DNA of 64,000 bases from Algicella marina. Its GTDB lineage: Bacteria; Pseudomonadota; Alphaproteobacteria; Rhodobacterales; Rhodobacteraceae. Positions 2,224-58,057 of the stretch are shown here, piece after piece (positions within the stretch are counted from its first letter, which is position 1; each line of letters starts with the position of its first letter). The stretch lies in NCBI RefSeq assembly GCF_009931615.1, contig NZ_CP046620.1:1379501-1443500 (forward strand). The letters run 5' to 3'. Below the pieces are notes generated by a model. The model saw only the letters and a list, made by a program, of their open reading frames with translations. It did no database searches and was not told where the DNA came from. Position numbers and translations under genes: made by a program.

Positions 2224-3402
2224 TCACCCGAGCTCGCGGGAATGATAGGTCTTGGGCTTGATGTCGTAGTGCACGGCCAAACGCTGCAACGCGATCTTCA
2301 AAACGACCTTGCCGGAGCGGGCAGACCAGCCAAGGCGCTTCTCGGCGGTTTCCAGACCTTCCAGAAAACAGCAGACGCGCATTGCCACGTCCGAAAGACC
2401 CGAACCGAGCGCGTGCATTGCCTCTCCGAAGCGGTCACGGGCCGCGGCCGGTCCCTCGCAAGGTCCCCTGGAGGCTGCCCCGCCCTTGGGCCGGCTTTCT
2501 GCCGTCAGAAAATGCTCCCAGTTCTGGGCAACACGGGGCCCCATTTGCGCAAGTTCGAAGTCTTCGCGAAATCTCTCTCCTGCCTCGATCAATTCCGGTG
2601 ACAGATACGGCGCTCCGGTCCTGTCCTTCTTGCGCCCCAATACAAGCAACGGGCTTTCAGCCAAATTGAAGCGCACGACCCGCGCTTCGGAATTGTGGCT
2701 GGCGGGAACGTGTCGTTCGCCGAATTCCTGATGCTGAGCCTGAAAGGGCGTCTGCTGTTCCGCCATCCCGGGCACCGAATGGACCTGCCGCGCCCTGTCT
2801 TCTTCCAGCAGACGCTTCAGGCTCGCACGACCAGCGTCAGTTATGACGTATCGCAGAACACGTCCCTTGGTCTTGCACTCGACCCAGTCGCACAGCGCAA
2901 ACTGATGTGCGACATCGCGATCCATCACCGCTATGCGGGTGTGACGGCCGGGTACGGTCTCCCGGAGGATTACCGCCTTCTCCATTTCCGGAGACACGAC
3001 CAGAAAAGCATTCTTCTCACAAAGGCGTCGGAGAATTCGCTTCGCCTCCTTGGACACAACATCCGACTTTTCTTCAACGCAACGCGCAGCATTCGCAACC
3101 ATGACCGAAATCTCCTTGGGGGTTATGGCACCTATGTCGGAAATGGTGAGTGCGGCACCCACTTGCTCGAGAGCCAGATCGAACAAAGGATCTTCGCGTC
3201 TCGATTCCACTCGCCGGATCTGCCGCAATAGCGTAGACGCGTGCTGACCCTGAGCACATGCCAGTCTGCGGATAGGCACCCTTCCAACGATATGCGCCAG
3301 ATAAGTAATCAACCGTCCAGAATCGGCACAGGGCGAGTGCTTGGCCGAACCAGATGTAATCTTTACTGTCTCACGAAAGCTCTGGGGTTTCGTGGGTACC
3401 AC
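2224..3402 (-). CDS. DUF6456 domain-containing protein
   Basis: 392-residue protein of a family I recall from Rhodobacterales; its function is unknown. The N-terminal half has helix-turn-helix-like segments (ILRRLCEKNAFLVVS, then DAGRASLKRLLEEDRAR). The C-terminal half carries the family core, including YLSPELIEAGERFREDFELAQ and a conserved-looking LSDVAMRVCCFLEGLE stretch. The overall pattern suggests a DNA-binding or replication-associated protein, which is inference only. The start is GTG, with AAGG about seven bases upstream. It diverges from the DUF6477 gene across about 190 bp; I recall the two families as neighbours in related genomes, suggesting a shared role. There is no signal peptide or membrane segment. 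Confidence 0.72.
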   Translation of the reverse strand: MVPTKPQSFRETVKITSGSAKHSPCADSGRLITYLAHIVGRVPIRRLACAQGQHASTLLRQIRRVESRREDPLFDLALEQVGAALTISDIGAITPKEISVMVANAARCVEEKSDVVSKEAKRILRRLCEKNAFLVVSPEMEKAVILRETVPGRHTRIAVMDRDVAHQFALCDWVECKTKGRVLRYVITDAGRASLKRLLEEDRARQVHSVPGMAEQQTPFQAQHQEFGERHVPASHNSEARVVRFNLAESPLLVLGRKKDRTGAPYLSPELIEAGERFREDFELAQMGPRVAQNWEHFLTAESRPKGGAASRGPCEGPAAARDRFGEAMHALGSGLSDVAMRVCCFLEGLETAEKRLGWSARSGKVVLKIALQRLAVHYDIKPKTYHSRELG

Positions 3403-3592
3403 CGGATCGCCTTTTAATTACAATTTGACGAAACTCTACCTAAAGTTGAATAGTAAAAGAGACGTTAATCCTCGCAGTTTCTGGGGAGTTCTGATTTGCG
3501 AGTTGACGGACAGGACGGTCCAGCGCCGAAAACAGCAACGGGTTGGATTGGCGATCATAGTCGGACGTGTCAGAACCGAGGAGGCTCAGTCC

Positions 3593-3877
3593 ATGTCCGA
3601 AGTCATTCAATCGCTCAACGAACTGCGCAGACCGCGTCTGCTCGTCCGTGCGGCCCGTCTTGGCGCGTCACTCTACCGGCGAGATCGGGATCTGGCCGCT
3701 GCACTGGGCGGTGAACCATCACACCGTCAAACCCTCTCGTCCTTGCTTTCATTGGAAGAAAGCATCGAGAGTATTCGCCGGCGTGGAAACGGCGCTTACT
3801 CGCCAGAAAAACACATCCGGGTGCTGACGGCCCTGATTGCGGAGGCACAGATTTTCAACAGATTGCAGCCTGGTTGA
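3593..3877 (+). CDS. DUF6477 family small protein
   Basis: 94-residue, Arg-rich, probably all-helical protein. The open frame extends upstream to 3341, but the ATG at 3593 has GAGGAGG eight bases before it, and the upstream part overlaps the likely promoter region of the divergent gene. Recognisable stretches are LRRPRLLVRAARLGASLYRR and EKHIRVLTALIAEAQIFN. The family is uncharacterised; proximity to the divergent DUF6456 gene is the only functional hint. It ends 9 bp before the stop of the convergent MttB-family gene, so transcripts probably overlap. Confidence 0.75.
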   Translation: MSEVIQSLNELRRPRLLVRAARLGASLYRRDRDLAAALGGEPSHRQTLSSLLSLEESIESIRRRGNGAYSPEKHIRVLTALIAEAQIFNRLQPG

Positions 3878-3886
3878 CCGGCATCA

Positions 3887-5437
3887 TCAGCCGAAAGCGT
3901 CCGGCTCCCTTGCCTTTGCTCTTGCCACGAAGTCCGAAATGGCCTCGGCCTTGGCCGGATCAATGGCAGGAGCCTGGTACTCACTCAGCATCCGTCGCAT
4001 TTTCAGGTTCGCCAGCGTAAAAGAATCGCGGCTACCTTCGTCGGACCAAGTTTCGAACGGCTTGTAATCAAGAACGTTCGTGCGCCAGAACGCTTCCTTG
4101 AAGTTTGCCTGAGTGTGCGCACAGCCAAGATAATGGCCACCGGGCCCAACCTCACGGATAGCATCCATAGCCTGGCCGTTCTCCGATACATCCACGCCTG
4201 CGGCCACGGAGTGCAGAATGCCGAGTTGATCTGCGTCCAGCACGAATTTCTCGAAGGAGGATACCAGCCCGCCTTCCAGCCAACCGGCGGCATGCAGCAT
4301 GAAATTCACGCCGCCGAGCAAAGCCGCGTTCAGCGTATTCGCCGTCTCGTATGCGGACTGGGCGTCAGGCAGTTTGGAACCGCAGAGCGCGCCGCCCGAG
4401 CGGAACGGCAGGTTTAGTCTTCGGGCAAGCTGACCGGCACCATACAGGATCTTGGATGCCTCTGGCGTACCGAAGGTCGGGGCGCCGGAATTCATGTCTA
4501 TGGAGGTGACAAAAGCGCCGAAAATCACCGGCGCTCCCGGCCGCACCAGTTGCGAATAGGCAATGCCGGCCATCGCCTCTGCCAGTACCTGCGTCAGCGT
4601 ACCGGCCACGGAAACCGGGGCCATCGCGCCACCGACAATGAAGGGAGATATGATGCAGGCCTGGTTGGCTGCAGCATAGACCTCCAGCGCGCCCATCATC
4701 ACCGAATCGAATGTCAGTGGAGAGTTGATGTTGATCAGCGAGGTCATCACCGTGTTCTGGTCAACGAACGCCTCACCAAACAGGATCTTGCACATTTCGA
4801 CGCTGTCGACAGCTCGTGCGGGATCAGTGACCGAGCCCATGAAAGGCTTGTCCGAAAGGGTCATATGCGCCTCGATCATGTCGAGGTGACGCTTGTTCAC
4901 GGCAATATCGGTCGGCTCACATACTGTACCGCCGGAATGGTGCAGCCATTTCGACATGAAGCCTAGGCGAACGAAGTTGCGGAAGTCTTCCATGGTAGCA
5001 TAGCGCCGGCCGCCTTCGAGATCGCGCACGAACGGCGGGCCATAGACGGGCGCCAGGACCAGTGACTTGCCGCCAATCTCGACATTTCGATCCGGATTGC
5101 GGGCGTGCTGCGTGAATCGGGCAGGTGCGGTGGAACAAAGTTTCCTCGCCATCCCCGGCGGTATGTGTACCCGCTCGCCGCGGACATCGGCCCCGGCCTC
5201 GCGCCAACGCTCCAGCGCCGCCGGATTGTCTACAAAAGCCACACCAACCTCTTCCAGCACCGTCTCGGCGTTGGCTTCGATGATCGAAATCGCCTCTTCG
5301 TCCAGAATCTCGAAATTGGGAATCCGACGCTCTATGTACCGGGCGGCTTCAATTTTCGGGGCCGTGCGTTCCGCCCTGCGCGCGGCACCGCCGCCGCCAC
5401 GACCACGCCGTTGACCGCTCACCGCTGCCTCGCTCAT
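3887..5437 (-). CDS. Trimethylamine methyltransferase (MttB) family protein, non-pyrrolysine type
   Basis: 516-residue member of the MttB superfamily, TIM-barrel enzymes that move a methyl group from a quaternary or tertiary amine to a corrinoid protein. Family-like stretches include GAFVTSIDMNSGAPTFGTPE and SGGALCGSKLPDAQSAYE. The frame is uninterrupted, so it does not use an amber-encoded pyrrolysine; non-Pyl homologues such as MtgB act on glycine betaine and similar compounds. The open frame reaches a GTG at 5467, but the ATG at 5437 has GGAGG eight bases upstream. The N terminus (residues 8-25) is Gly/Arg-rich. No corrinoid protein, reductive activator or transporter is adjacent, so the substrate is unknown. 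Confidence 0.82.
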   Translation of the reverse strand: MSEAAVSGQRRGRGGGGAARRAERTAPKIEAARYIERRIPNFEILDEEAISIIEANAETVLEEVGVAFVDNPAALERWREAGADVRGERVHIPPGMARKLCSTAPARFTQHARNPDRNVEIGGKSLVLAPVYGPPFVRDLEGGRRYATMEDFRNFVRLGFMSKWLHHSGGTVCEPTDIAVNKRHLDMIEAHMTLSDKPFMGSVTDPARAVDSVEMCKILFGEAFVDQNTVMTSLININSPLTFDSVMMGALEVYAAANQACIISPFIVGGAMAPVSVAGTLTQVLAEAMAGIAYSQLVRPGAPVIFGAFVTSIDMNSGAPTFGTPEASKILYGAGQLARRLNLPFRSGGALCGSKLPDAQSAYETANTLNAALLGGVNFMLHAAGWLEGGLVSSFEKFVLDADQLGILHSVAAGVDVSENGQAMDAIREVGPGGHYLGCAHTQANFKEAFWRTNVLDYKPFETWSDEGSRDSFTLANLKMRRMLSEYQAPAIDPAKAEAISDFVARAKAREPDAFG

Positions 5438-7153: not shown

Positions 7154-7579
7154 TCACCGGCGCAGTGCCTGCGCCTTTCTGAGGTCGGAAGCGCTATAGG
7201 TGCGCCCGGCACAGTCCGCCTCGTAGCGGCGTGACACTTCTCGCCTTGCCTTCAATGCCGCCCTGATTCTGTCACGCAACTCGTGCAGAGCATTTTCGGC
7301 TGCTCTGATCTCCGCTTGTACCGACTGCAAAGCGGTTGCCACGGTCGCGTCGATTTGCGCAGTCTGGAACAAGGTCCGTTCCCGCAACCCCAGTTCGCGC
7401 AAGTCTGCATCGACCCGACTCGCCCGTTCCGTATGCTCCAGCACACGGATATCGATTGCGTCGAGTTGATCGGAGAGGTCCAGACACGCCGCAAGTTCCG
7501 GAGCCGTGATCAACGACGGCACATCCGCTGTCGCAGCCGAGGTGACGGCGAGAAGACACATGGCGAAAGACAGTTTCAT
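7154..7579 (-). CDS. Small secreted coiled-coil protein, function unknown
   Basis: 141 residues. An N-terminal signal peptide is visible (MKLSFAMCLLAVTSAATA), with probable cleavage near residue 18. The rest is hydrophilic and rich in Glu, Arg, Ala and Leu; heptad-like spacing over about residues 40-115 suggests one long coiled coil. Two cysteines (C31 in AACLDL and C122 in ADCAGR) bracket it and could form a disulfide in the periplasm. I do not recognise the family. It lies 34 bp downstream of a secreted peptidase-like gene on the same strand, so the two may form a small operon of exported proteins. Confidence 0.65.
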   Translation of the reverse strand: MKLSFAMCLLAVTSAATADVPSLITAPELAACLDLSDQLDAIDIRVLEHTERASRVDADLRELGLRERTLFQTAQIDATVATALQSVQAEIRAAENALHELRDRIRAALKARREVSRRYEADCAGRTYSASDLRKAQALRR

Positions 7580-7613
7580 GTCGCCAGTCTGACGGGGGTG
7601 CCTGAAGGCCGCG

Positions 7614-8282
7614 TTAAGGCCGCAATGCCCGCAAGATCAGGTCAGAGCTGAATTCGCCTGCAGCACAGACCGCGAAATCCCCCGCATCCCTGCCCTTGCG
7701 GAACCAGCTTTCGCGTTCCGCTGTGCCGACGGACACCCGCGGACCGTTGGCCACAGGGCTTGCGCCCCAATGGCTGGTGGTAAAGGCTTCCCCCCCCGCC
7801 ACCGCTGCCGGACCCTGGGCCCGCTTGCCGATAGCCTCCCGCAGGATCACACCGGCGATGCATTCGACCTGCTGCGTCACCATTGTGCGCAGTTCCCACT
7901 CGCGGGCACGGTTGGCGCGTATGGTTGCCAAGGCCCTATCCGCAATCCCGTGACGGACCTGTACGGCGTGACCATACATGTGTGCCAGCCGATAGGCCAT
8001 TTCGTCCTCGCCCATCTCCGTCAAGTCCAGCCGGGCAACATAGATGCGATTGAGATCGGTGCAGTAGAGCATGTGGGGGTCACTATCCCCGTCTCCGCCG
8101 CACACGTCCCGCAGCGCGGATGTCAGACTGACACCGGGCAGACGCGTAAAAAAGCCCTCAGCGGCCCGAACGACGGGCAGCAAAGCCTGCGCTGTTCGCG
8201 GCGAAAGTTCTGACATCGCAACATCCTGTGCCATGGATGGCAAAGGGGTGAGCAGAGCAAGGAAAAGAAAAAGAGCTCTCAT
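7614..8282 (-). CDS. Secreted neutral zinc metallopeptidase-like protein with altered HExxH motif
   Basis: 222 residues from the ATG at 8282, which is followed at once by a signal peptide (MRALFLFLALLTPLPSMAQ). The frame upstream is open but overlaps the divergent transporter gene and looks non-coding. The core resembles the YpfJ-type neutral zinc peptidase family: MLYCTDLNRIYV, then LAHMYGHAVQ where family members have AHExGHxVQ, then QQVECIAGVIL. The catalytic Glu is thus Met (HMYGH), although both His are kept and the later Glu/Cys segment is present. It may bind zinc without cleaving peptides, or be a decaying copy. It is probably co-transcribed with the coiled-coil secreted gene downstream. 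Confidence 0.72.
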   Translation of the reverse strand: MRALFLFLALLTPLPSMAQDVAMSELSPRTAQALLPVVRAAEGFFTRLPGVSLTSALRDVCGGDGDSDPHMLYCTDLNRIYVARLDLTEMGEDEMAYRLAHMYGHAVQVRHGIADRALATIRANRAREWELRTMVTQQVECIAGVILREAIGKRAQGPAAVAGGEAFTTSHWGASPVANGPRVSVGTAERESWFRKGRDAGDFAVCAAGEFSSDLILRALRP

Positions 8283-8385
8283 CCGCAGAGTGATATTGCA
8301 AAGCGGACCCTCTGGCCAGCACCTCCCTCGATCACCGACACTTTCACTCTTGCCCTCCTCTGAAACCGGGTGCAGGGTCCGCGCC

Positions 8386-9267
8386 ATGGAAAACCGTACC
8401 CGCCCGCTGCTGGCCGCCCTGTGGATGATGGGGGCCATGATGTCCTTCACGCTGATGGCGGTTGCGGGACGCGAACTTGGCGGGCGCCATGATACCTTCG
8501 AGATCATGTTCTACCGGTCGTTGCTGGGCATCCTTATCGTCGTCGGCGTCGGCACAGTCACGGGCCAGTTACACCGCATCCGCCGGACCCGTCTGAAGCA
8601 TCATCTTGTTCGCAACATATTTCACTTCAGCGGCCAGAACCTGTGGTTCTATGCCGTCACGGTGATCCCGCTGTCTCAGGTATTTGCACTGGAATTCACC
8701 ACTCCCCTTTGGGTGGCGCTGCTGTCGCCACTCTTTCTCGGCGAACGGATGACGGGTATTCGCCTTGCGGCCGCTGGCCTGGGCTTCGTTGGCATTCTCA
8801 TCGTCGCCCGGCCTGATGCCATGGCCCTGAACTCCGGCATCTTTGCCGCAGCCGCCTGTGCCATCTGCTTCGCGGCGACGACAATCGCCACGAAGGGCCT
8901 TTCGCGGCACGAGGCTGTGATCTCTATCCTCTTCTGGCTCACTGTGATGCAGGCCGTGTTCGGCTTGATCATGGCCGGTTATGACGGGGCCATACGGCTT
9001 CCCTCGGCCGAAACGCTGCCGCTCCTCGCAGTTGTCGGATGCTGCGGTCTGTTCAGCCATTTCTGCATTACCAATGCCCTATCACTCGCACCCGCAACGG
9101 TGGTCAGTCCGCTGGAATTTCTCCGACTGCCCCTTGTCGCCATCGTCGGCCTGATGCTGTACGACGAGCCGATCCTTGCCACCGTCTTCATTGGTGCGGC
9201 ACTGGTTCTGGCCGCCAATCTGATCAACATTCTTTCGGAACAGCGACGGCAAGGCGTTACAGCCTGA
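8386..9267 (+). CDS. EamA/DMT-family transporter
   Basis: 293-residue inner-membrane protein with about ten hydrophobic segments arranged as two EamA repeats; the first ends near residue 140 (GFVGILIVARPD) and the second near the C terminus (GAALVLAANLINIL). Such proteins are drug/metabolite exporters or importers, and the substrate cannot be predicted. The start ATG at 8386 begins MENRTRPLLAALWMMG; the longer upstream frame overlaps the divergent secreted-peptidase gene. The two divergent starts are about 100 bp apart. A Lys/Arg-free hydrophobic core and a short C-terminal tail (EQRRQGVTA) fit the family. Confidence 0.88.
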   Translation: MENRTRPLLAALWMMGAMMSFTLMAVAGRELGGRHDTFEIMFYRSLLGILIVVGVGTVTGQLHRIRRTRLKHHLVRNIFHFSGQNLWFYAVTVIPLSQVFALEFTTPLWVALLSPLFLGERMTGIRLAAAGLGFVGILIVARPDAMALNSGIFAAAACAICFAATTIATKGLSRHEAVISILFWLTVMQAVFGLIMAGYDGAIRLPSAETLPLLAVVGCCGLFSHFCITNALSLAPATVVSPLEFLRLPLVAIVGLMLYDEPILATVFIGAALVLAANLINILSEQRRQGVTA

Positions 9268-9337
9268 GAGGCCTTTCCCGGCGCTGGCATTCATGCTACC
9301 CGGCCCGCGACCGCGATCAAAATGCAAGGAGCATGCG

Positions 9338-9874
9338 ATGAACATCGACAAAATCCCCGCCGGCAAGAACCCGCCCGAAGACATCAATGTGGTGATCGAA
9401 ATCACTGGCGGCGCCGGTGGTGGCGCCCCCGTGAAATACGAAATCGACAAGGATAGCGGCGCCGTATTTGTGGACCGGATCGTCAACACACCGATGTTCT
9501 ATCCGTGCAACTACGGCTTCGTGCCCAATACGCTGCATGCCGATGGCGACCCGACTGATGTGCTGGTGCTCTGCGACTTCGACCTCGCCCCCGGCGTGGT
9601 GATCAAGTGCCGCCCCGTGGGCGTGCTGAAGATGGAAGACGACGGCGGCATGGACGACAAGCTGATCGCCGTACCGATGGAAAAGGTCGATCCGTTCCAG
9701 GCCGGTATCCAGGAACTGACCGACATCCCCCAGAAGACCCGTGACCGCATCAAGCACTTCTTCGAGCATTACAAGGACCTCGAGGAAGGCAAGTGGGTCA
9801 AGGTCATTGGCTGGGGCGACAAGGCAGAAGCCAAATCCATTCTTCAGTCTTCTCTGGACGCAATGAACAAGTAA
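9338..9874 (+). CDS. ppa: Inorganic pyrophosphatase (family I)
   Basis: Hydrolyses pyrophosphate released by biosynthetic reactions, in the cytoplasm. The 178-residue length is typical of bacterial family I enzymes. The metal-binding signature DGDPTDVLVLC lies near residue 65, preceded by NYGFVPNT; the later Asp/Lys cluster (DDGGMDDKLIAV) and KHFFEHYKDLE are also family features. AAGGAG sits seven bases before ATG 9338; the 15 codons upstream in frame lack support. Followed by two inverted repeats and then a porin-type gene. Confidence 0.96.
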   Translation: MNIDKIPAGKNPPEDINVVIEITGGAGGGAPVKYEIDKDSGAVFVDRIVNTPMFYPCNYGFVPNTLHADGDPTDVLVLCDFDLAPGVVIKCRPVGVLKMEDDGGMDDKLIAVPMEKVDPFQAGIQELTDIPQKTRDRIKHFFEHYKDLEEGKWVKVIGWGDKAEAKSILQSSLDAMNK

Positions 9875-9927
9875 TAGCCGGCAGTCAGTAAGCATTGCTT
9901 ACAAGATCTGTTGCCTTTCGGCTGAAA

Positions 9928-9957
9928 ACGCTGCGTCACAAAAACGTGACGCAGCGT
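9928..9957 (+). terminator. Perfect 12-bp inverted repeat after ppa, probable terminator
   Basis: ACGCTGCGTCAC, six-base loop, then its exact complement GTGACGCAGCGT, followed by AATTTATT. The stem is strong but the following U-run is poor, so it may be a terminator for ppa or an operator for the porin promoter that begins seven bases later. A second perfect repeat, GTAAGC-att-GCTTAC, lies at 9888-9902, just past the ppa stop. Confidence 0.55.
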
Positions 9958-9963
9958 AATTTA

Positions 9964-9993
9964 TTGACCGCCTTCCTCCCCCCTGCGTAACAA
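9964..9993 (+). promoter_or_regulatory. Probable sigma-70-type promoter of the FadL-like porin
   Basis: TTGACC at 9964-9969 and TAACAA at 9988-9993 are separated by 18 bp. This would place transcription start near 10000, about 30 bases before the porin ATG, whose Shine-Dalgarno GGGAGG is clear. Read by eye only. Confidence 0.45.
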
Positions 9994-10031
9994 TGTCGCA
10001 AAAGCTATAAACTTCGTCTCGGGAGGACGAC

Positions 10032-11147
10032 ATGACCTTGAAAGCATCTGCGGTTGCCATTGCACTCAGCTCCGTCTCAACCAGCGCCGTTCTCGCTGGC
10101 GGTCTCGATCGAACCGGACAACCTATTGGCGTGCTGTTTGAGGAAGGCCGCTACGTTGAGTTGTCTTTCGGTGGCGTTTTTCCCGATGTCAGCGGCACGG
10201 ATGTCGCGCTCCAGCCCACGGGCAATGTCGGCAACGCCTATTTCGTCGGCGGGGCAGCCTACAAGGCCGATCTGACGGACAGCATATCCTACGCTCTGAT
10301 TGTCGATCAGCCCTACGGAGCCAGCGTCGAGTATGGAGCGACAACACCCGTTTTCGCCGGCACCTCGGCCGAAGCTTCTACCGTCGCGGTTACGGCGATC
10401 GGTCAGTACAATTTCAATGAGAATTTCAGCGTCTACGGCGGTGTCCGTGCCCAGCAGATCAAGGCCGAAGTCGGTCTCAGCGGTGCAGCCTACGGTCCTC
10501 TCTCCGGCTACGAGTTCGAGGGCGAGTCGGATTGGGGCGTCGGCTATGTTGTCGGCGCCGCCTACGAACGCAAGGACATCGCCCTGCGCGTGGCCCTGAC
10601 CTACAGTTCCGAAATCGACCATTCCTTGCCAACGACGGAAACTCTTGCCGGAGGAGGTGCCGTGCCCGGATCGGGCGCCGATACCGAAGTCACGTCGCCG
10701 CAGTCCGTGAATCTCGATTTCCAGACAGGTATCATGGCCGACACGTTGCTCTTCGGCTCCATCCGTTGGGTGAACTGGGACGGGTTCTCGGTGGCACCGG
10801 TTGGCTTGGGCACCGTGTCGCCTGGGTCGACACTCGTTACCTACGAAGACAACACATTCACCTATAACCTTGGCATTGGCCGCCGCTTCACCGAAAACTT
10901 CTCCGCTGCAGTCCAGGTCGGCTACGAAGAAAACCTCGGCGGAACGGTATCAGCGCTCGGTCCGACCAACGGCTTCCTGTCCTTTGGCGTCGGCGGCACC
11001 TACACGATGAACAATGGTCTCGAGCTGACGGGCGGCCTTCGCTACATCATGCCGGGCGATGCGACGGTGGCCTCCGGTGGTGGCACAGCGGAGTTCGAAG
11101 ACAACAACGCAATCGCTGCTGGTCTGAAGATCGCCTACCGCTTCTGA
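10032..11147 (+). CDS. OmpP1/FadL-family outer-membrane protein
   Basis: 371-residue outer-membrane beta-barrel with a signal peptide (MTLKASAVAIALSSVS, cleavage near AVLAGG). The mature part has alternating hydrophobic/hydrophilic strands with frequent Gly, Tyr and Phe and ends in the aromatic residue typical of barrels (KIAYRF). The N-terminal GLDRTGQPIGVLFEEGRY and the strands around VGYEENLGGTV resemble FadL/OmpP1 proteins, which carry fatty acids or other hydrophobic compounds. It is shorter than enteric FadL (about 446 residues), as I recall for Rhodobacterales members. It has its own promoter candidate and a textbook terminator, so it is probably monocistronic. Confidence 0.85.
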   Translation: MTLKASAVAIALSSVSTSAVLAGGLDRTGQPIGVLFEEGRYVELSFGGVFPDVSGTDVALQPTGNVGNAYFVGGAAYKADLTDSISYALIVDQPYGASVEYGATTPVFAGTSAEASTVAVTAIGQYNFNENFSVYGGVRAQQIKAEVGLSGAAYGPLSGYEFEGESDWGVGYVVGAAYERKDIALRVALTYSSEIDHSLPTTETLAGGGAVPGSGADTEVTSPQSVNLDFQTGIMADTLLFGSIRWVNWDGFSVAPVGLGTVSPGSTLVTYEDNTFTYNLGIGRRFTENFSAAVQVGYEENLGGTVSALGPTNGFLSFGVGGTYTMNNGLELTGGLRYIMPGDATVASGGGTAEFEDNNAIAAGLKIAYRF

Positions 11148-47061: not shown

Positions 47062-48060
47062 TCAATTGGCGTTGAAACTTTGCGCCAGCATGATCCGGTC
47101 GCGGCCGATATCGTCCGCGAACTGTTCCCAGACAGGCTGGAAAGCCTCGCGCCACTCGCCCAGTTCCTCCGGCGTCAGCGAGATGATGTTCTTGGTTTCA
47201 TCCCAGACATCCCGCGCCCGCTGCTCGTTGATCTCGTAGGCGAAGCGGTTGTATTCGTGCGTCGTCAGCTCGAACAGCAGCAGGAATTCGTTCCGCACAT
47301 CTTCTGGCAGGGATTCCATGAACTCCTGATTGGTCACCACCAGATAGCCAAGATAGGCGTGGTTGGATTCAGTCACACCGTCCTGAACCGTGTAGAACTT
47401 CTTGGTATGGATGTTGGACCAGGTATTTTCCTGCCCCTGCACCTCGCCGCTGGCCAGCGCGTCATAGACCTTCGAGAAAGCCAGTCGCTTGGTTTCGGCA
47501 CCAAGCGCACCGAACTGCGCTTCGATCACGTCCGAAGGCTGGATGCGGAAGGTCAGGCCTTCGGCATCTTTCGGCAGCCGCAGCGGCCGGGTTGCCGAAA
47601 GCTGTTTCATGCCGTTCATCCAGAATCCGAGGCCCTTCAGCCCCGACGGATCGAGCGCCCCGAGAAGTTCCTGCCCGGCAACCGAGTTCTGATAGTCAAG
47701 CACCGCAATCGCACCATCAAAAAGGAATGGCAGGTCGAAAATGCGGAACGCGCTGGTGTAGGGCTCGAACTTGGAAAGCGACGGCGCCAGAAGCTGCACC
47801 TCGTTGTCGAGCAGCGCCTGCATCTCGTCGGCATCGGTAAACAGTTCCGAATTGCCGTACACTTCCATGCACATCTTGCCGTCAAGCTTGCTGTTCACAC
47901 GCTCCGCCAGTGCCAGCGCGGTTTCACCCTTGGGGTGGCCCTGCAGCGCTGTCACGACGCTCATCTTCGCAACGATTTCACCGGGATCACATTGCGCCAT
48001 TGTCACGGTAGGCACGGCCATTGCCAAGGCCATGCCAGCCAGTATCGAAAGGGTCTTCAT
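47062..48060 (-). CDS. TRAP transporter substrate-binding protein, second DctP of the operon
   Basis: 332 residues with a Sec signal peptide (MKTLSILAGMALAMAVPTVTMA). DctP-type layout: HPKGETALALAERVNSKL, PSLSKFEPYTSAFRIFDLP, the ligand-binding Arg in LTFRIQPSDVI and QGQENTWSNI. It aligns along its length with the other DctP of this operon (50440-51441) but with many substitutions, so it is an old paralogue. It is the last gene, after dctM and a 94-bp gap. It may give the same permease a second substrate. Confidence 0.92.
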   Translation of the reverse strand: MKTLSILAGMALAMAVPTVTMAQCDPGEIVAKMSVVTALQGHPKGETALALAERVNSKLDGKMCMEVYGNSELFTDADEMQALLDNEVQLLAPSLSKFEPYTSAFRIFDLPFLFDGAIAVLDYQNSVAGQELLGALDPSGLKGLGFWMNGMKQLSATRPLRLPKDAEGLTFRIQPSDVIEAQFGALGAETKRLAFSKVYDALASGEVQGQENTWSNIHTKKFYTVQDGVTESNHAYLGYLVVTNQEFMESLPEDVRNEFLLLFELTTHEYNRFAYEINEQRARDVWDETKNIISLTPEELGEWREAFQPVWEQFADDIGRDRIMLAQSFNAN

Positions 48061-48154
48061 ATCGTTTCGGTCCTTATCAAAGCCTGCGCCCCCAGGTAAT
48101 CAGGCACCTACTACTTCACAAACTCCACCCTAGACCCTTTTTGTGGATCGTTTG

Positions 48155-49633
48155 TTATCTGACGATGATCTCCGGCCCCATGATCTGGGTAGGAAGGAAC
48201 GTCGATATCCACGGCACGTACGTAACGATGATCAGGAATACGAACAAGATCAAAAGCCACGGCAGTGCCGCCCGCACGACACTCAGCATCGGCATTCCCG
48301 CCACGCCGGACGTGACGAACAAGTTCAGTCCGACCGGCGGCGTGATCATCCCGATCTCCATGTTCACCACCATGATGATGCCGAGGTGTATCGGGTCGAT
48401 GCCAAGTTCGATGGCAATCGGAAAGATCAGCGGCGCGACGATCAGGATCAGGCCCGACGGTTCCATGAACTGGCCACCGATCAGCAGGATGACATTGACG
48501 ATGACAAGGAACATTACCGGTCCCAGTCCGGCCTCCAGCATGGTTCCGGCAATCGCCTGCGGTATCTGCTCGTCCGTCAGCACGTGCTTCAGGATCAGCG
48601 CATTGGCGATGATGAACATCAGCGTGATCGTCAGCTTGCCCGCATCGTACAGCGTCTCGATGGTGTCGGCATGGAACCATGCCGTAACCAGCGCATAGGG
48701 CTTGCGGTGCAGCGGCAGCGGCGTGTGAGTCGGGTCATCCTCCTCCGCCTTCAACGGCCCCATATCGCGATAGACGAAAGATGCGACGAGGAAGGCATAG
48801 ACAGCCGCAACAGCCGCAGCCTCGGTTGGCGTGAACACGCCCCCGTAGATCCCGCCCAGAATGATGACAATCAGGAACAGGCCCCACCCGGCCCTCGAAC
48901 CGGTGTCGAGGATCTCGCCCCAACCCTTCCACTCCTCACGTGGCAGCTTGGCGATCACAGCGTAGGCGAAGATCGCAACCATCAGCATGCCGCCCGCCAG
49001 CAAACCGGGGATAACCCCTGCAAGGAACATCCGACCGACGGAGACATCCGTCGCCGCCGAGTAGACCACCATCACGATCGACGGCGGAATCAGGATGCCA
49101 AGCGTACCCGCGTTGCAGATAACCCCGGCCGCAAAGGCCTTGGTATAGCCAACGCGCTGCATCCCCGCGATCACGATGGAGCCCACGGCCACCACCGTCG
49201 CCGGCGAGGAGCCGGAGAGCGCCGCGAACAGCATACATGCGAACACGCCCGCAATCGCCAGCCCGCCCGGGAAATGCCCTACACAGGCGATGGAAAAGTC
49301 GATGATGCGCCGCGCCACACCGCCGGTGGACATGAACGCCGAGGCGAGGATGAAGAACGGAATCGCCAGCAATGTGGGATGCCCGAACATTGCCTGGAAA
49401 AGCGATTGGGCAATCGCCGCCAGTGACGTGTCGGACAGCACCAGATGAAAGAGAATCGATGCCAGCCCCAGCGCAACGGCAATAGGCACGCCGATCAGCA
49501 GAAACGCGATCACCATCAGGAACAACGCCGTCACCTTGATACCGGGGCTCGCCGCCAGCGATTCCGCACCGAAGAAGATGAACCAGAACACCAGCGCCAG
49601 CGTCGCCAGCGTGAAGACCAATGCCGTTTTCAT
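48155..49633 (-). CDS. dctM: TRAP transporter large permease DctM
   Basis: 492-residue inner-membrane protein with about 12 hydrophobic segments. DctM motifs: GVPIAVALGLASILFHL near the N terminus, ALSGSSPATVVAVGSIV near residue 160, AGTLGILIPPSIVMVVYS and the C-terminal MITPPVGLNLFVTSGVAG. It couples sodium entry to uptake of C4-dicarboxylates or similar acids with DctQ and DctP. The start lies 1 bp after the dctQ stop. Slightly longer than the usual 430 residues. Confidence 0.94.
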   Translation of the reverse strand: MKTALVFTLATLALVFWFIFFGAESLAASPGIKVTALFLMVIAFLLIGVPIAVALGLASILFHLVLSDTSLAAIAQSLFQAMFGHPTLLAIPFFILASAFMSTGGVARRIIDFSIACVGHFPGGLAIAGVFACMLFAALSGSSPATVVAVGSIVIAGMQRVGYTKAFAAGVICNAGTLGILIPPSIVMVVYSAATDVSVGRMFLAGVIPGLLAGGMLMVAIFAYAVIAKLPREEWKGWGEILDTGSRAGWGLFLIVIILGGIYGGVFTPTEAAAVAAVYAFLVASFVYRDMGPLKAEEDDPTHTPLPLHRKPYALVTAWFHADTIETLYDAGKLTITLMFIIANALILKHVLTDEQIPQAIAGTMLEAGLGPVMFLVIVNVILLIGGQFMEPSGLILIVAPLIFPIAIELGIDPIHLGIIMVVNMEIGMITPPVGLNLFVTSGVAGMPMLSVVRAALPWLLILFVFLIIVTYVPWISTFLPTQIMGPEIIVR

Positions 49634-49634
49634 G

Positions 49635-50366
49635 TCAGCGCTCCGCGTTCAGGGCCACGGCCGCAACATCGTCCTCGGCCTCATGGCTGACGATCAGGCG
49701 GTCTTCCCGGTTTTTCCAGATCCGTATCGCGGCCCGGATGAACGCGCCCAGCAGCAGGAAAGACCCGATCGGCAGCATAACGTAGCCCACGGCCCGCGGC
49801 AGCTTGTCATATTCCTCGCCGAACACCCCTTCCATCCAAAGCAGCCAGGAGGGCATGTCGATCTCGTCGAAAGTGTAGAAGGCCTGCCGGTTGCGGAACG
49901 TCATTTCGGACAGGCCGGTCGGAAACCAGTGTCCCGTCGTCGCCGGCAGGTTAACGAAGCTGGAAAAATAGTCCCAACTGCCCTTGGCCACCAGAAACGC
50001 ATAGGCGATGCAAAGGAAGACAGACACCAGCCCCAGCAGCTTGCGTCCGGGCCGGTTGCACAGGTTCAGGATCACGTCGACACCGAGATGCGAACGTTTG
50101 CGAACCGCGTAGCCCATGCCGAACAGCACCAGCCACGAAAATAGGATCAAAGTCGTCTGGTAGCCCCAGTCGATGTTGTCAGGCCAGATGAAGCCCAGCT
50201 TCGCTTCCAGCCAGTTCACGGGCGCCCAGTCGAATGTCTTGCGAAAGAAGACGTTGATGCAGGTTATCAGCGTCATGATCCCGAGCATTGCGGCAATCGC
50301 CGTGCGCTCGAAAGCGTTGCTCGTTCGGGCCCACCAGCCCTCATGCTCTTCGTCATGTGACGACAT
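49635..50366 (-). CDS. dctQ: TRAP transporter small permease DctQ
   Basis: 243-residue membrane protein with four main hydrophobic segments (AIAAMLGIMTLITCINVFF; TLILFSWLVLFGMGYAV; LLGLVSVFLCIAYAFLV; YVMLPIGSFLLLGAFI). KRSHLGVDVILNL is the conserved DctQ motif near residue 90. Cytoplasmic tails are charged. It lies 1 bp before dctM and 73 bp after dctP; a long GC hairpin sits in that gap. Confidence 0.9.
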   Translation of the reverse strand: MSSHDEEHEGWWARTSNAFERTAIAAMLGIMTLITCINVFFRKTFDWAPVNWLEAKLGFIWPDNIDWGYQTTLILFSWLVLFGMGYAVRKRSHLGVDVILNLCNRPGRKLLGLVSVFLCIAYAFLVAKGSWDYFSSFVNLPATTGHWFPTGLSEMTFRNRQAFYTFDEIDMPSWLLWMEGVFGEEYDKLPRAVGYVMLPIGSFLLLGAFIRAAIRIWKNREDRLIVSHEAEDDVAAVALNAER

Positions 50367-50393
50367 AGCGGTGCCCTCCCTTTTTTGTTCAGC

Positions 50394-50421
50394 GCCCGCC
50401 CCGTCTCAGGACGGAGCGGGC
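50394..50421. terminator. 12-bp hairpin between dctP and dctQ
   Basis: GCCCGCCCCGTC, four-base loop, GACGGAGCGGGC, with one wobble pair. On the minus strand no U-run follows directly, so in the operon it is more likely a 3'-end stabiliser or partial terminator of the dctP message. On the plus strand it is followed by CTTTTT. Confidence 0.5.
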
Positions 50422-50439
50422 GACCTTTTTGTTATTGGA

Positions 50440-51441
50440 TCAGTAGCTTGCGTTCAGTTCCTGTGCCGCGGCAATGTTTTCCTCGCCCACGTCACCCTCG
50501 AACTGTTCCCAGACCGGCAGCATGGCGTCCACCCACTCCTGGCGCTGTTCCGGCGTCAGTTCGACAATCGTCGAACCAGCGTCGAGGATCGCCTGACGGG
50601 CCTCCATGTCGACCTGGCCGACAGCCGCGTTACGCTCTGTCGTCACCTCGTCCATGATGGTCGTGAGCTGGTCGCGGACATCCGCATCAAGCCCTTCCCA
50701 CCATTCCACGCCAACAACGACCATGTAGTCGAGCACGCCGTGGTTCGTCTCGGTGATACCGTCCTGAACCTCGAAGAACTTCTGGCCGTAGATGTTGGAC
50801 CACGTGTTCTCCTGCCCGTCCACAACGCCCGTCTGAAGCGCGCCGTAAACTTCGGAAAAGGCCATCGGCTGCGGGGAAACGCCGATCGCTTCCATCTGTG
50901 CCTTCAGCACGTCGGACGGCTGCACGCGGAACTTCAGGCCCTGCGCGTCAGAAGGCGAGATCAACGGTTTGTTGGCAGACATCTGTTTCATGCCATTGTG
51001 CCAGAAGCCAAGGCCCAGCAGACCACGGCGCGCCATGGATTCCTTCATCGCCTGGCCAGTCTCGGAAGCCTGGAACGCATCTACGGCGTCAATGTTCTTG
51101 AACATGAACGGCAGATCGAAAATGCGGAACACCTTCGTGAAGGCTTCGAACTTGGAAAGACTCGGCGCCGCCATCTGGACGTCACCGTTCAGCATCGCTT
51201 CGAGAACCTGGTCATCGTTGTAGAGTGTGGAGTTCGGGTAGACCTCGACACAGGCCTTGCCGTTCATCTCTTCGTTGACACGGCTCTGGAACAGCGACGC
51301 CGCGATCCCCTTGGGGTGCTTGTCAGTGTTGGTCACGTGACTGAACTTGATGACGACCTCGCCCTCTTCGCAGGAGGCAAAAGCCGAAGTGCCGCCGAGT
51401 GCCAGAAGCGCAGCGGTCGCTGTTGTAATCAGAAATTTCAT
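50440..51441 (-). CDS. dctP: TRAP transporter substrate-binding protein DctP
   Basis: 333 residues from ATG 51441, with GGGAGG upstream; the longer frame is unsupported. Signal peptide MKFLITTATAALLALGGTSAFA. DctP motifs: HPKGIAASLFQSRVNEEM, PSLSKFEAFTKVFRIFDLP, the ligand Arg in LKFRVQPSDVL and DGQENTWSNIYG. Resembles C4-dicarboxylate binders (succinate, fumarate, malate), in line with the DctB-like kinase upstream. First transporter gene of the operon, about 270 bp after the response-regulator gene; the gap holds a perfect 18-bp palindrome. Confidence 0.93.
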   Translation of the reverse strand: MKFLITTATAALLALGGTSAFASCEEGEVVIKFSHVTNTDKHPKGIAASLFQSRVNEEMNGKACVEVYPNSTLYNDDQVLEAMLNGDVQMAAPSLSKFEAFTKVFRIFDLPFMFKNIDAVDAFQASETGQAMKESMARRGLLGLGFWHNGMKQMSANKPLISPSDAQGLKFRVQPSDVLKAQMEAIGVSPQPMAFSEVYGALQTGVVDGQENTWSNIYGQKFFEVQDGITETNHGVLDYMVVVGVEWWEGLDADVRDQLTTIMDEVTTERNAAVGQVDMEARQAILDAGSTIVELTPEQRQEWVDAMLPVWEQFEGDVGEENIAAAQELNASY

Positions 51442-51667
51442 GGAAGACCTCCCAGTCTTGCTCAGGTTTCTTCTTCGGTGCGGTCCGGGAGAATGCATTT
51501 CCATGCACTCAACTCACACAACCCGGAAACACTGTGGCGAAAGGTACAGCGCCGAAGACACGCATCCAGTACTTTCGCCACTTTACACAAAGCCTCCGCA
51601 TTTTTATTGCAAATCAATGGCTTGTCTGGCTGATTGCAACTATTGGCGCGGCTCCGAAGGTGGATTA

Positions 51668-55295: not shown

Positions 55296-56879
55296 ATGGA
55301 ATGGGATTTCAGCAGGGAGGGCGAAAGGGAACGGCTTGAGGAGTGGCTAACAGATCGGGACTGGGAGATAGGAACCACCCTCGCCGCCCGCTCCGCTTTA
55401 CGCGTTCTTCCCAACCTCAACGGCTTATGGCGCGCCGGCCTTGGCGAGAAACAGCCAAGCGACATTCTCTTGCCGATCTTTCGTGCTACGCTCACAAGCG
55501 CCGTTGCGAGCATATGGCCAACGGCGCTTGTGAATGACGCTGAACTTCGCTTGGCCGCCCTCGCCGCCGCCCTCTCCACCGACTCCGCCCTCTCCGCCCT
55601 CTCCGCCGCCCTCTCCGCCCGCGACTCCGCCCTCGCCGCCACCCTCTCCGCCCGCTCCGCCGCCCTCTCCGCCGACTCCACCCTCTCCGCCCGCTCCGCC
55701 GCCCTCTCCACCGACTCCGCCCTCTCCGCCCTCTCCGCCGCCCTCTCTGCCCTCTCCGCCGACTCCACCCTCTCTGCCCTCTCCGCCGCCCTCTCCGCCG
55801 ACTCCGCCGCTGGCGACGCAGCATTCAAACCTGCTGAGGTTATGAACAGACCACTCTGGCCAGACGGCGAGAACCACGCCGAACTTGCAGAGAACTGGCA
55901 AAGGCTCCGCAAAAACCTCACTTCAGGCGACGAGAACTGGTCCTTCTGGATCGACTGGTACGAGCGCCACCTGCACGGCAAACCTCCTCAAGACTGGCCA
56001 CTCCTTGGGAAGATCGCCCTGATCCCGGAAGAGGATTGGGAGAAAGGTGCGGGGCATGTGAACTTGATCATCGCGAGGCTCAGCAGCCCTTCTCGTGTCA
56101 AAACCCTCGCCAACAGTTTGCCCAATGCCGAAACGATCCAAAGAAATCCCGACACAGGACTATTTGAAGCCATTCCGGCGGAAATTGAGCAAAAAACGAG
56201 GTTTCGGAATGCCATAAACAAGGTTCGTGAAAGCCTTGATGATCTCGATGACTATCGCACGATCAACGAACCTCTGCCGCTGGATTTCTACACCAAGAAG
56301 CTTCGCAAGAAGATGGATCGTTATGCTGGGGAGGCACTCCCACTACACGATGCCTTCGAGGCAGCTTACCACGGCCTTTGTCAAACCTGTCCATCTTCCG
56401 AAACGCCATTCGGGCAAGCCGTTGCGGAACTGATTAACGATCTCCAAACAGGATTCAAGGACTTGCGCGACGACCCAGAGGTCGACAAAACCGTGCGAAG
56501 CAGAGTCCGTAGGAAGCCGCACCTTTCGTCCGTCGAGGCGGCTGACTCTCTTGCACCAGTGATTGAGAGCGTGGCTCAGGATAGTGATGCAAAGCTAAAG
56601 GAAACCTTAGGCGCCAACTTCGAACTTATCCGCCAACCATTAAGCGCAGAAGAAATCTCAGACGAACGTGTCTCCGAGGAACGCGCAAACGCGCTCTACG
56701 ACACGATAAGCAAATCCGCCAAAGTTCAGGACATCAGACATCGCGAAGAAACATCCCGATATCAAACGATCGTTGATGCCGCAGATGATGCGCGAAAATT
56801 AGGTCAAGGAGGAGACGTCCTGGCTAAGACATCGAACGCAATCTTGGACTTTGTGTCGACCTATTGGCCATTAGGATGA
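55296..56879 (+). CDS. Hypothetical protein with hyper-repetitive Leu-Ser-Ala tract
   Basis: About 527 residues from ATG 55296 (MEWDFSREGERERLEEWL); no good Shine-Dalgarno, and a TTG at 55275 overlaps the preceding gene. Residues about 1-85 are a conserved-looking helical head (TLAARSALRVLPNLNG). Residues about 86-172 are a low-complexity tract with thirteen LSA and two LST units (ALSADSTLSAR-type repeats), hydrophobic on one face. After it comes a soluble, charged part with FWIDWYERHLHGKPPQDW, LIPEEDWEKGAGHVN and a helical C terminus. No membrane segment, signal or known catalytic motif. G+C of the 3' half is clearly below that of its neighbours. It overlaps the P450 gene (ATGA). Confidence 0.75.
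   Translation: MEWDFSREGERERLEEWLTDRDWEIGTTLAARSALRVLPNLNGLWRAGLGEKQPSDILLPIFRATLTSAVASIWPTALVNDAELRLAALAAALSTDSALSALSAALSARDSALAATLSARSAALSADSTLSARSAALSTDSALSALSAALSALSADSTLSALSAALSADSAAGDAAFKPAEVMNRPLWPDGENHAELAENWQRLRKNLTSGDENWSFWIDWYERHLHGKPPQDWPLLGKIALIPEEDWEKGAGHVNLIIARLSSPSRVKTLANSLPNAETIQRNPDTGLFEAIPAEIEQKTRFRNAINKVRESLDDLDDYRTINEPLPLDFYTKKLRKKMDRYAGEALPLHDAFEAAYHGLCQTCPSSETPFGQAVAELINDLQTGFKDLRDDPEVDKTVRSRVRRKPHLSSVEAADSLAPVIESVAQDSDAKLKETLGANFELIRQPLSAEEISDERVSEERANALYDTISKSAKVQDIRHREETSRYQTIVDAADDARKLGQGGDVLAKTSNAILDFVSTYWPLG
55551..55812 (+). repeat. Degenerate tandem repeat of CTCTCCGCC-type units inside a gene
   Basis: About 260 bp built from 9- and 12-bp variants of CTCTCCGCC and GCCCTCTCCGCC, with interspersed GACTCC and CGCTCC. 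All units are multiples of three, so the frame is kept. The plus strand is very C-rich. All six frames are nearly free of stops here, which creates long spurious ORFs. Confidence 0.9.
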
Positions 56880-58057
56880 TCCCCACCTTCCACCAATCCC
56901 CCCGCGACCCGGCCTTCGTCCAGAACCCCTACCCCACCTATGCCCGGATGCGTAGCCTCGCCCCTCTCTTCCACTGGGCGGATTACGGCATGCCCGCCAC
57001 CGCCGCTTTCGACCTCATGGAAACCATTCTGAAGGATCGTCGCTTCGGCCGCGAGGTGCCCGAGGCGGAGCGTCGCGCACGGCCGCCGCATCTCGCCCCG
57101 TTCTACCGCATTGACGACAACTCCATGCTGGAGCGGGAGCCGCCTGCGCACACCCGCCTCCGCGGTCTCGTCCTGCGCGCCTTCACATCCCGCCGCATCG
57201 CCGGGCTGGCCCCGGAAATCCGCACTCTCGCCCATCACCTGATCGACAGGTTCGAAGGTCCGCACATCGACCTGCTGCCGACCTATGCCGAGCAACTGCC
57301 CGTCATCGTCATCGCCCGCCTGCTCGGCGTGCCGGAGACTTCGGCACCCGATCTGCTCAACTGGTCCCACGCCATGGTCGCCATGTACCAGTCCCGCCGC
57401 GACGCGCAGGTGGAGCGTGAGGCCCTGTCGGCAACCGCCGAGTTTTCCGCCTTCCTCGCCGATCACATCGCCGCCCGCCGCCGCGCCCCTCGCGACGATC
57501 TGATCTCGCATCTCATCGCCGCCCGCGACGCCGGCGACAGTCTCACCGAGGAGGAACTGGTTGCCACCTGCATCCTGTTGCTCAACGCCGGTCACGAGGC
57601 CACCGTCCACACCATCGGCAACGGTGCCCACTTTCTGCTGCGCACCGGCCGCCGCCCCGAAGACCCGGTTGCGATGACGGAAGAGGTGCTGGCCGCCGAC
57701 CCGCCGCTTCATGTCTTCCAGCGCATCGCGATGGAGACGGTGGAGATCGCCGGCCACCGCTTCGAACCGGGCGACCGCGTTGCCCTCGTTCTCGGCGCAT
57801 CAGGCGGCCACGCGGGCGAATTCCTGAGCGATCCTGTCGCAATACCGAAACCATACCAAACCCATACCGAATCCATACACCTGGCATTCGGGCTCGGTCG
57901 CCATTTCTGCCTCGGTGCGCCGCTGGCCCGGATGGAGGTCGCGATTGCCCTTCCGGTCCTGTTCGAACGCCACCCGAACCTCGCTCTGGCGAGCCACCCA
58001 ACCTATGCCGACCGCTACCATTTTCGCGCGCTAAAAGATCTGAGGGTAGCTCTCTAA
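56876..58057 (+). CDS. Cytochrome P450 with atypical K-helix
   Basis: 393 residues from ATG 56876, overlapping the preceding stop (ATGA); the TTG at 56864 is not favoured. I-helix: LLNAGHEATVHTIGNG near residue 240. Haem-binding loop: FGLGRHFCLGAPLAR with the thiolate Cys at residue 345. The K-helix ExxR motif, nearly invariant in P450s, reads E270-V-L-A273: Arg is replaced by Ala. The meander before the haem loop also lacks the usual NRDP..F..P-F-P-R pattern and holds an 11-residue stretch encoded by a triplicated repeat. A three-dimensional haem fold is still likely; activity is uncertain. No ferredoxin gene nearby. Confidence 0.9.
   Translation: MIPTFHQSPRDPAFVQNPYPTYARMRSLAPLFHWADYGMPATAAFDLMETILKDRRFGREVPEAERRARPPHLAPFYRIDDNSMLEREPPAHTRLRGLVLRAFTSRRIAGLAPEIRTLAHHLIDRFEGPHIDLLPTYAEQLPVIVIARLLGVPETSAPDLLNWSHAMVAMYQSRRDAQVEREALSATAEFSAFLADHIAARRRAPRDDLISHLIAARDAGDSLTEEELVATCILLLNAGHEATVHTIGNGAHFLLRTGRRPEDPVAMTEEVLAADPPLHVFQRIAMETVEIAGHRFEPGDRVALVLGASGGHAGEFLSDPVAIPKPYQTHTESIHLAFGLGRHFCLGAPLARMEVAIALPVLFERHPNLALASHPTYADRYHFRALKDLRVAL
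57845..57877 (+). repeat. Three tandem 11-bp repeats within the P450 gene
   Basis: CCGAAACCATA, CCAAACCCATA and CCGAATCCATA follow one another exactly. Together they make 33 bp and so keep the reading frame, encoding an 11-residue stretch (PKPYQTHTESI) about 20 residues before the haem Cys. Confidence 0.85.

What the first reader, a model, noticed from the sequence alone, without database searches (positions are those of the whole stretch)
55296..56879. Hyper-repetitive Leu-Ser-Ala protein wedged between a PLP enzyme and a P450
Seen: a conserved-looking helical head, then about 87 residues made of LSA/LST units, then a 350-residue soluble part. The DNA repeat units are multiples of three, so copy number can change without frameshift. 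Its 3' half is lower in G+C than both neighbours, and its stop overlaps the P450 start. This suggests an acquired, fast-evolving gene whose tract length may vary between strains. From memory, alphaproteobacteria carry uncharacterised proteins with a similar WxDWYxxxL..G..W block beside Ala-rich tracts; if right, this is a member of a widespread, undescribed family with a variable amphipathic helical module.
Basis: partly seen in the sequence, partly recalled or inferred. Interest (0 to 1): 0.72.

Follow-up and report, generated by a model that had tools for sequence, protein, structure and literature searches.

The report
Protein family with swappable tail ends
The repeat-rich gene belongs to an unnamed family in roseobacter-type bacteria whose front half stays put in a few chromosomal slots while its whole tail end is exchanged like a cartridge between relatives, a pattern known from genes that fight other genomes; what it does is untested.

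Summary
In detail: a 527-residue gene (55296-56879) with a Leu-Ser-Ala tract. It belongs to an undescribed family detected in 104 of 394 genomes of its bacterial family (Rhodobacteraceae); the window protein has no Pfam, NCBIfam or PADLOC match. The repeat is not its most unusual feature. Members have a head, an Ala-rich tract, a conserved Trp-rich core and one of many unrelated C-terminal modules. In the sister species the same slot holds an orthologue with 57% identical head plus core, a rewritten tract and an unrelated C-terminus: DNA homology stops about 20 bases before the core's end and returns within 15 bases of the start of the stop codon. A pair from one MAG breaks the same way. Most members fetched sit in two slots: by murC/murB in the division/cell-wall cluster (45 of 114), or beside lepA (36 of 114). 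Front halves follow the slot; the largest module classes do not follow the front-half tree, nor module class the host markers. Modules C0 and C1 also follow HEPN/RES-NTD1-like heads, where other proteins carry the RES toxin. Best reading: single-gene conflict proteins, probably abortive-infection-like, with exchangeable effector cassettes. Cassette exchange is shown; the defence function is inferred.

The parts
55296..56879 (+). the family gene, 527 aa (ATG; alternative TTG at 55275)
   Evidence: single match in its genome
55296..55547 (+). head, residues 1-84: helices, R..ALRVLP and LRATLxSxVA blocks
   Evidence: alignments A1 and A4; model helices 10-19, 23-36, 38-47, 54-73
55548..55808 (+). 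Leu-Ser-Ala tract, residues 85 to ~171; codon-multiple tandem repeats; modelled as four helices 81-102, 106-125, 132-152, 156-174
   Evidence: TRF; AF2; variation in relatives
55818..56084 (+). WY core, about residues 175-263 (PLWP, WSFWIDWY, G, EEDWEKG..HVN), the most conserved part of the family
   Evidence: profile A2; match 192-280 of the 544-residue open frame
56063..56879 (+). stretch without DNA homology to the sister species' orthologue: the exchanged cassette
   Evidence: blastn window vs L111
56085..56876 (+). C-terminal module of class C0, residues 264-527; residues ~295-402 modelled as a helical bundle

Best explanation
The gene is one member of a modular family in which a constant front half (head + helical Ala-rich tract + Trp-rich core) carries one of several unrelated C-terminal modules. 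Shown: in relatives with the same genomic surroundings the C-terminal cassette is replaced whole, with one crossover near the end of the core and one at or after the stop codon, while the front half and flanking genes stay. Shown: two module classes, C0 and C1, also stand behind another N-terminal domain, HEPN/RES-NTD1 or a close relative of it, where other proteins carry the RES toxin. Inferred: the front half senses or binds something, possibly a phage product, and holds the C-terminal module in check, and the module is the effector released on sensing, i.e. a single-gene, abortive-infection-like conflict protein kept diverse by selection. Inferred: cassettes move between genomes by homologous recombination, with the core on one side and conserved neighbours (murB and others) on the other. 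The tract is predicted to be a short array of helices between head and core whose repeats turn over quickly.
For: Sister-species slot: head + core 57% identical over 155 columns, C-terminus 23%; DNA homology ends at window 56062 and resumes at 56880. L101 vs L102: 88.6% over 769 bp, then none, then 98.2% over 110 bp from the stop codon on. Of 12 pairs chosen for close front halves (11 of different module class, plus L101/L102, both C0), none has a blastn match (E <= 1e-6, 60 bp or more) inside the module; 11 have one in the front half up to the core region, and 10 have one again downstream. On the front-half tree (113 rows) slot A/B changes 3 times in 81 rows (shuffled mean 26.7, 0 of 500 as low), while class C0 changes 35 times (34.1), C1 24 (22.8), C4 6 (5.9). 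Nearest relatives by MurB, MurC or LepA share the module about as often as chance: 14 of 42, 7 of 39, 12 of 36 against 11.7, 11.6, 8.6; pairs with the same module are not significantly closer in the marker (77, 904 and 678 of 999 permutations as high). Of six PF18870 matches (E <= 0.001) in 198 genomes two carry RES, two C0, two C1. PMC3710099 (passages read) proposes that such N-terminal domains bind viral targets and may restrain C-terminal toxins.
Against: No phage, toxicity or expression data exist. PADLOC: nothing for the window protein at E up to 1, and of 41 members only one match at E up to 0.01 (LmuB, 0.0059). Both main slots are among core genes; no defence island was noticed, though neighbours were only partly annotated. 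No known fold was found: Foldseek gave nothing at E <= 0.001 for either model. Long hydrophobic segments exceed shuffles overall (43 of 114 vs 29.0) and clearly in C3 (10 of 12 vs 2.6), but not in the window's class C0 (16 of 42 vs 13.1) or C1 (4 of 25 vs 5.2), so a general membrane-attack mechanism is not supported. Of the four HEPN/RES heads with C0 or C1, L212 and L213 score below Pfam's cut-off, and L211 is above it in one search (28.8 bits) and just below in the other (27.0 against 27.4); only L210 is above in both. Module class is not fully random on the tree: six groups together 55 changes vs 63.1 shuffled, 0 of 200 as low. C2 sits almost only in slot B (12 of 13).
Confidence: 0.45

Rival explanations
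1. A multi-allelic recognition or envelope protein: the C-terminal modules are the exposed or partner-binding part of something tied to cell-wall synthesis or division, and they vary because phages or predators select against common types; the protein itself kills nothing.
For: 45 of 114 members lie on the strand of murC and/or murB in the division/cell-wall cluster; some modules (C3) have hydrophobic segments near the end (10 of 12).
Against: The family was not detected in 290 of 394 genomes, so it is dispensable. The other slot is lepA, with no wall link. C0 and C1 are also found behind HEPN/RES-NTD1-like heads, a domain of conflict proteins. I saw no export signal by eye, but ran no predictor.
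Confidence: 0.2
2. A secreted polymorphic toxin used against non-kin cells, with the front half as trafficking part and the C-terminus as toxin.
For: Constant N-terminal part plus exchangeable C-terminal cassettes is the hallmark of polymorphic toxins (PMC3482391, passages).
Against: Such cassettes travel with an adjacent immunity gene (same passages). Here the window gene overlaps the next gene, and in 8 of 45 slot-A members the MurB match starts within 60 bases of the ORF end, so in these no partner gene fits directly downstream.
Confidence: 0.1
3. Weakly constrained gene turnover: the C-terminus and tract change because nothing much depends on them, and conserved neighbours merely make recombination easy.
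For: Patchy presence; the tract changes much faster than its flanks (L101 vs L102: 24 of 52 aligned codons nonsynonymous, against 7 of 78 in the head and 11 of 101 in the core).
Against: Modules keep recognisable class-specific sequence in long open frames across genera and across both slots: C0, C1 and C3 occur in A and in B.
Confidence: 0.15
4. One reading: the repeat tract is the functional variable module, its length tuned between strains, and the rest is support.
For: Repeat arrays with different units at the same place in 34 of 99 members; the best array of each has a period divisible by three.
Against: The other 65 of 99 members have no such array at score 50; C-terminal exchange is the larger and more consistent difference.
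Confidence: 0.1

Closest known systems
HEPN/RES-NTD1 proteins (PF18870), an N-terminal domain of abortive-infection-type proteins
   Same: An N-terminal helical domain followed by alternative C-terminal modules; modules C0 and C1 of this family occur behind it in the position that RES takes in two other proteins.
   Different: The window protein has no PF18870 match at E up to 10, and no known enzymatic domain was found in its module.
Polymorphic toxin systems (CDI, Rhs and others; PMC3482391)
   Same: Constant N-terminal part, C-terminal cassettes exchanged by recombination.
   Different: No room for an adjacent immunity gene where the neighbour overlaps or abuts the gene; preferred slots among core genes; no secretion evidence.
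AbiJ-type and other Abi N-terminal-domain proteins (PMC3710099)
   Same: The proposed logic of sensor plus C-terminal effector in one chain.
   Different: Here the N-terminal half is the constant part and the C-terminus is replaced within a slot; no HEPN nuclease found.
Imm5-like putative immunity proteins (PF21805)
   Same: From memory, an Ala-rich helical tract after an R..LP block.
   Different: No match of the window protein at E up to 10, and 0 of 31 genomes over the family cut-off.

Membership tests
Family described here (head + tract + WY core) | WY core profile match | tested here: met
   window match E 7.4e-29 in its genome; the window's own core is a row of the profile
Family described here (head + tract + WY core) | head before the core | tested here: met
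   head found by profile in 99 of 113 members, window included; the other 14 were not examined one by one
Polymorphic toxin systems | constant N-terminal part with exchangeable C-terminal cassettes | tested here: met
Polymorphic toxin systems | immunity gene directly downstream | tested here: not met
   window stop overlaps the next gene; MurB match starts within 60 bases of the ORF end in 8 of 45 slot-A members; the other members were not checked for a partner gene
Polymorphic toxin systems | trafficking domain or secretion signal | not tested
   no signal-peptide tool was used; no trafficking domain among the Pfam matches
HEPN/RES-NTD1 proteins (PF18870) | PF18870 domain in the window protein | tested here: not met
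   0 Pfam families at E up to 10
HEPN/RES-NTD1 proteins (PF18870) | C-terminal module shared with PF18870 proteins | tested here: met
   C0 in L211 and L212, E 3e-63 and 6e-59; L211's head is above Pfam's cut-off in one of two searches, L212's in neither
Imm5-like (PF21805) | PF21805 match | tested here: not met
Known anti-phage defence protein (PADLOC-DB 2023) | match to a listed model | tested here: not met
   window none at E up to 1; of 41 members one match at E up to 0.01 (0.0059)
Any solved fold | structural match of the modelled protein | tested here: inconclusive
   Foldseek none at E <= 0.001; VIA-align best Z 8.8 and 11.2, mostly generic helical bundles

The most novel reading that the evidence does not exclude
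Rhodobacteraceae keep a two-locus, multi-allelic immune gene: preferred slots in the division cluster and beside lepA, in which effector cassettes are exchanged between genera by homologous recombination anchored in the gene's own core and in conserved neighbours, perhaps carried by gene transfer agents. The allelic classes C0, C1 and C3 are older than the split of the two slots. That would be a bacterial counterpart of trans-species polymorphism.
Probability: 0.35. Interest if true: 0.85.

Novelty: new variant of a known kind. Interest (0 to 1): 0.68.

Why it matters
If right, about a quarter of the sampled genomes of a major marine bacterial family (104 of 394) hold an unnamed, cassette-swapping conflict gene, often inside the cluster that builds the cell wall. 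It gives six module classes of four or more members to test as effectors, a new N-terminal 'head', and a natural record of module exchange with visible crossover points. Annotation gains too: in the 41 members scanned, head, core and modules matched no Pfam or NCBIfam model below E 0.001, apart from the HEPN/RES head of two relatives that lack the core.

Tried and rejected
Imm5-like immunity protein (lead from memory): rejected. Phage or plasmid origin of the family: no phage record, one plasmid record at 21% coverage, one viral contig confirmed of 44 candidate stretches; not supported as a general explanation. PHROG matches in 41 members: phrog_17908 in two (one read: the HEPN/RES-type head of L069), phrog_342 ('internal virion protein with endolysin domain') in two at 3.6e-5 and phrog_35196 in one at 3.5e-5; which members give the last two was not resolved, as none of the ten re-scanned did. 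A membrane-attack mechanism for all modules: hydrophobic segments are above chance overall and in C3, not in C0 or C1. Structure neighbours: mostly generic helical bundles. A stand-in for the family in non-carriers: of 20 genomes without a match, murB was found in 18 and lepA in 19; 18 and 17 regions were fetched and 22 gaps looked at by eye, without family searches; they seemed to hold ordinary genes or little beyond DUF2484 (the output was cut, so this reading is partial). Front-half similarity as simple vertical descent: at slot A it does not follow MurB or MurC (Spearman 0.07 and 0.06; 239 and 252 of 999 permutations as high), at slot B it follows LepA (0.32, 0 of 999). Papers: seven searches; none of the papers listed deals with the family by title and start of abstract, but two listings were capped (20 of 445, 8 of 135) and one search showed 10 of 17; passages of two papers were read.

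Limits: the 114 members are the window, 100 regions chosen from the match lists (two of them without a core, one with two cores genes), and 22 loci, minus 8 duplicates; further matches were not fetched. One 1172-residue member was left out of the tree. Module classes are single-linkage clusters, so C0 is loose (L101 and L102 are both C0 at 22% identity). The tree is a quick one: 52 of 110 inner branches have support under 80. 'Slot' was set by tblastn position of MurC, MurB or LepA: of the 45 slot-A members 36 show both murC upstream and murB downstream, 9 only one of the two. Four members that the script had called 'other' were moved to B by hand because their long open frames overlap lepA.

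Full report
Observation. The ORF at 55296-56879 encodes 527 residues with a Leu/Ser/Ala tract (residues 85 to ~171) in codon-multiple DNA repeats; the other arrays in the 64 kb score 41 and 53 against 236 here. It is the only match in its 4.0-Mb genome.

Family. The window protein has no Pfam or NCBIfam match at E up to 10, none in PADLOC at E up to 1, and weak PHROG matches only (0.0043 at best). Its C-terminal 356 residues have matches at E <= 0.01 in 55 of 198 genomes of the same family, its own included. A profile of the conserved core (A2) matches 104 of 394 family genomes at E <= 0.001 and 8 of 385 class genomes, three of them of the same family with its own. A named-genome scan returned 21 loci, titled Rhodobacteraceae, Rhodobacterales or genera such as Nioella, Cognatishimia, Litoreibacter and Tritonibacter, with one Methyloligella and one unplaced alphaproteobacterium; eight of these proteins are identical in their last 200 residues to those of unnamed carriers, which places the window's family. 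Of 41 members scanned, the only Pfam match below E 0.001 was HEPN_RES_NTD1 in two; these are L069 and L070, which lack the core. NCBIfam gave nothing below 0.003.

Anatomy. Typical members have a head, a variable Ala-rich tract, the WY core and a C-terminus. The tract has a median of 82 residues (20-127 in 99 members); 34 of 99 carry tandem arrays at score 50 or more, with different units (LSA, DSA, NAA, HAA, ATD...), the best array of each having a period divisible by three, against 1 of 99 heads and 2 of 99 C-termini. AlphaFold2 models the window protein as nearly all helical (pLDDT 78, pTM 0.57), with the tract as four helices of about 20 residues. A C1 member is modelled with pLDDT 84 and pTM 0.83 and ends in four long helices. 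No fold match reached E <= 0.001, and VIA-align gave mostly generic helical bundles (Z 8.8 and 11.2 at best).

The C-terminus is an exchangeable cassette. The C-termini of 114 distinct members fall into clusters of 42, 25, 13, 12, 6, 4, 2, 2, 2 and six singletons. The only other genome of the window's genus that was held at 90% completeness or more (G199) has the orthologue in the same place: 57% identity over 155 head and core columns, a rewritten tract, and an unrelated C-terminus of another class (C4 instead of C0). DNA homology runs from upstream through window 56062, 23 bases before the end of the core match, is absent for 817 bases, and resumes at 56880, the base after the stop codon (in the sister 15 bases after the start of its stop codon). 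The third genome of the genus, 77% complete, has no match. In one named MAG two copies share 88.6% DNA identity over 769 bp, then nothing, then 98.2% over 110 bp from the stop codon on (L101 and L102); they could be two strains in one bin. Of 12 pairs chosen for close front halves (11 of different class, plus L101/L102), none has a blastn match inside the module; 11 have one in the front half (L118/L120 has none there), and 10 have one again downstream, starting 0 to 1933 bases after the last sense codon; two show no resumption in the stretch compared.

Slots. Of the 114 members, 45 lie at slot A (same strand as murC and/or murB; both seen in 36; DUF2484, ddl, ftsQ, ftsA and ftsZ around in many), 36 at slot B (beside lepA, opposite strand), two at the window's slot, and 31 elsewhere or unresolved (representatives of the neighbours confirmed by Pfam). 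Six genomes carry both an A and a B copy. The tree of 113 front halves separates A from B with 3 changes in 81 rows (shuffled mean 26.7, 0 of 500 as low). Classes C0, C1 and C4 change as often as shuffled labels; C2 and C3 slightly less (11 vs 12.5 and 11 vs 11.6); all six groups together are somewhat clustered (55 vs 63.1, 0 of 200 as low). Within C0 and within C1 the C-terminal trees also separate A from B (2 changes each; shuffled 8.7 and 7.2 for A; 0 of 500), so exchange is mostly within a slot, while C0, C1 and C3 exist in both; C2 was not seen in A and C4 not in B. Some cross-slot movement is visible: L095 (A) and L136 (B) share 56% of the C-terminus at 29% front-half identity over 75 columns. 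Host relatedness by MurB, MurC or LepA does not predict the module; front-half identity follows LepA at slot B but not MurB or MurC at slot A.

What the modules may be. In 198 family genomes a C0 profile has 22 matches in 20 genomes; at least two of these proteins, in G013 and G179, have a HEPN/RES-NTD1-like head instead of the core; a further one in G037 was not read. PF18870 itself matches six proteins in 198 genomes at E <= 0.001: two carry RES (L208, L209), two C0 (L211, L212), two C1 (L210, L213). Of the four with C0 or C1 only L210 is above Pfam's cut-off in both searches, L211 in one of two, L212 and L213 in neither. L206, from a wider search, has C1 behind a similar head, weakly supported (E 0.031). 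L207 has C1 (E 3.4e-9) behind a third N-terminus that, from memory only, resembles the N-terminal part of some HNH endonucleases. The HEPN superfamily paper (PMC3710099; passages read) describes HEPN/RES-NTD1 as fused to HEPN, RES and other domains, and proposes that Abi N-terminal domains bind viral targets and might restrain C-terminal toxins. That places C0 and C1 in an effector position. It is an inference by position, not by activity.

Judgement. Cassette exchange at conserved flanks, two preferred slots, and sharing of modules with a conflict-type head are shown, the last with the score caveats above. That the protein senses phage and kills or stalls the cell is inferred (about 0.45). 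Gene transfer agents as carriers of the exchange are a suggestion from general knowledge of the order and were not tested. None of the papers listed in seven searches describes the family by title and start of abstract; the listings were partly capped.

Noticed in passing
L045 (G083), ORF 7502-11017 minus strand and 3811-4974: One 1172-residue open frame holds three WY cores in tandem, with a fourth core gene beside it.
   Followed up: partly
L033/L034, L117/L118, L123/L124, L126/L141, L133/L136, L129/L156: Six genomes carry a slot-A and a slot-B copy; the module class differs in five of the six.
   Followed up: partly
L069, residues 122-193: The HEPN/RES-type head of this C0 protein matches phrog_17908 (E 2.3e-12), a family of phage proteins of unknown function.
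   Followed up: no
two and one of the 41 members of alignment A1, not resolved which: phrog_342 (internal virion protein with endolysin domain, 3.6e-5) matches two members and phrog_35196 (3.5e-5) one; none of the ten re-scanned members gave them.
   Followed up: partly
L197 (G024), 2127-4166 minus strand, beside lepA: A non-carrier has a 680-residue open frame that looks, by eye, like a DNA methyltransferase in the lepA flank.
   Followed up: no
window 57842-57878: 3.4 copies of an 11-base repeat (ATACCGAAACC) inside the downstream neighbour gene, a period that is not a multiple of three.
   Followed up: no
window 47062-51504: By eye, two TRAP-type binding-protein genes flank one pair of TRAP membrane subunits.
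   Followed up: no
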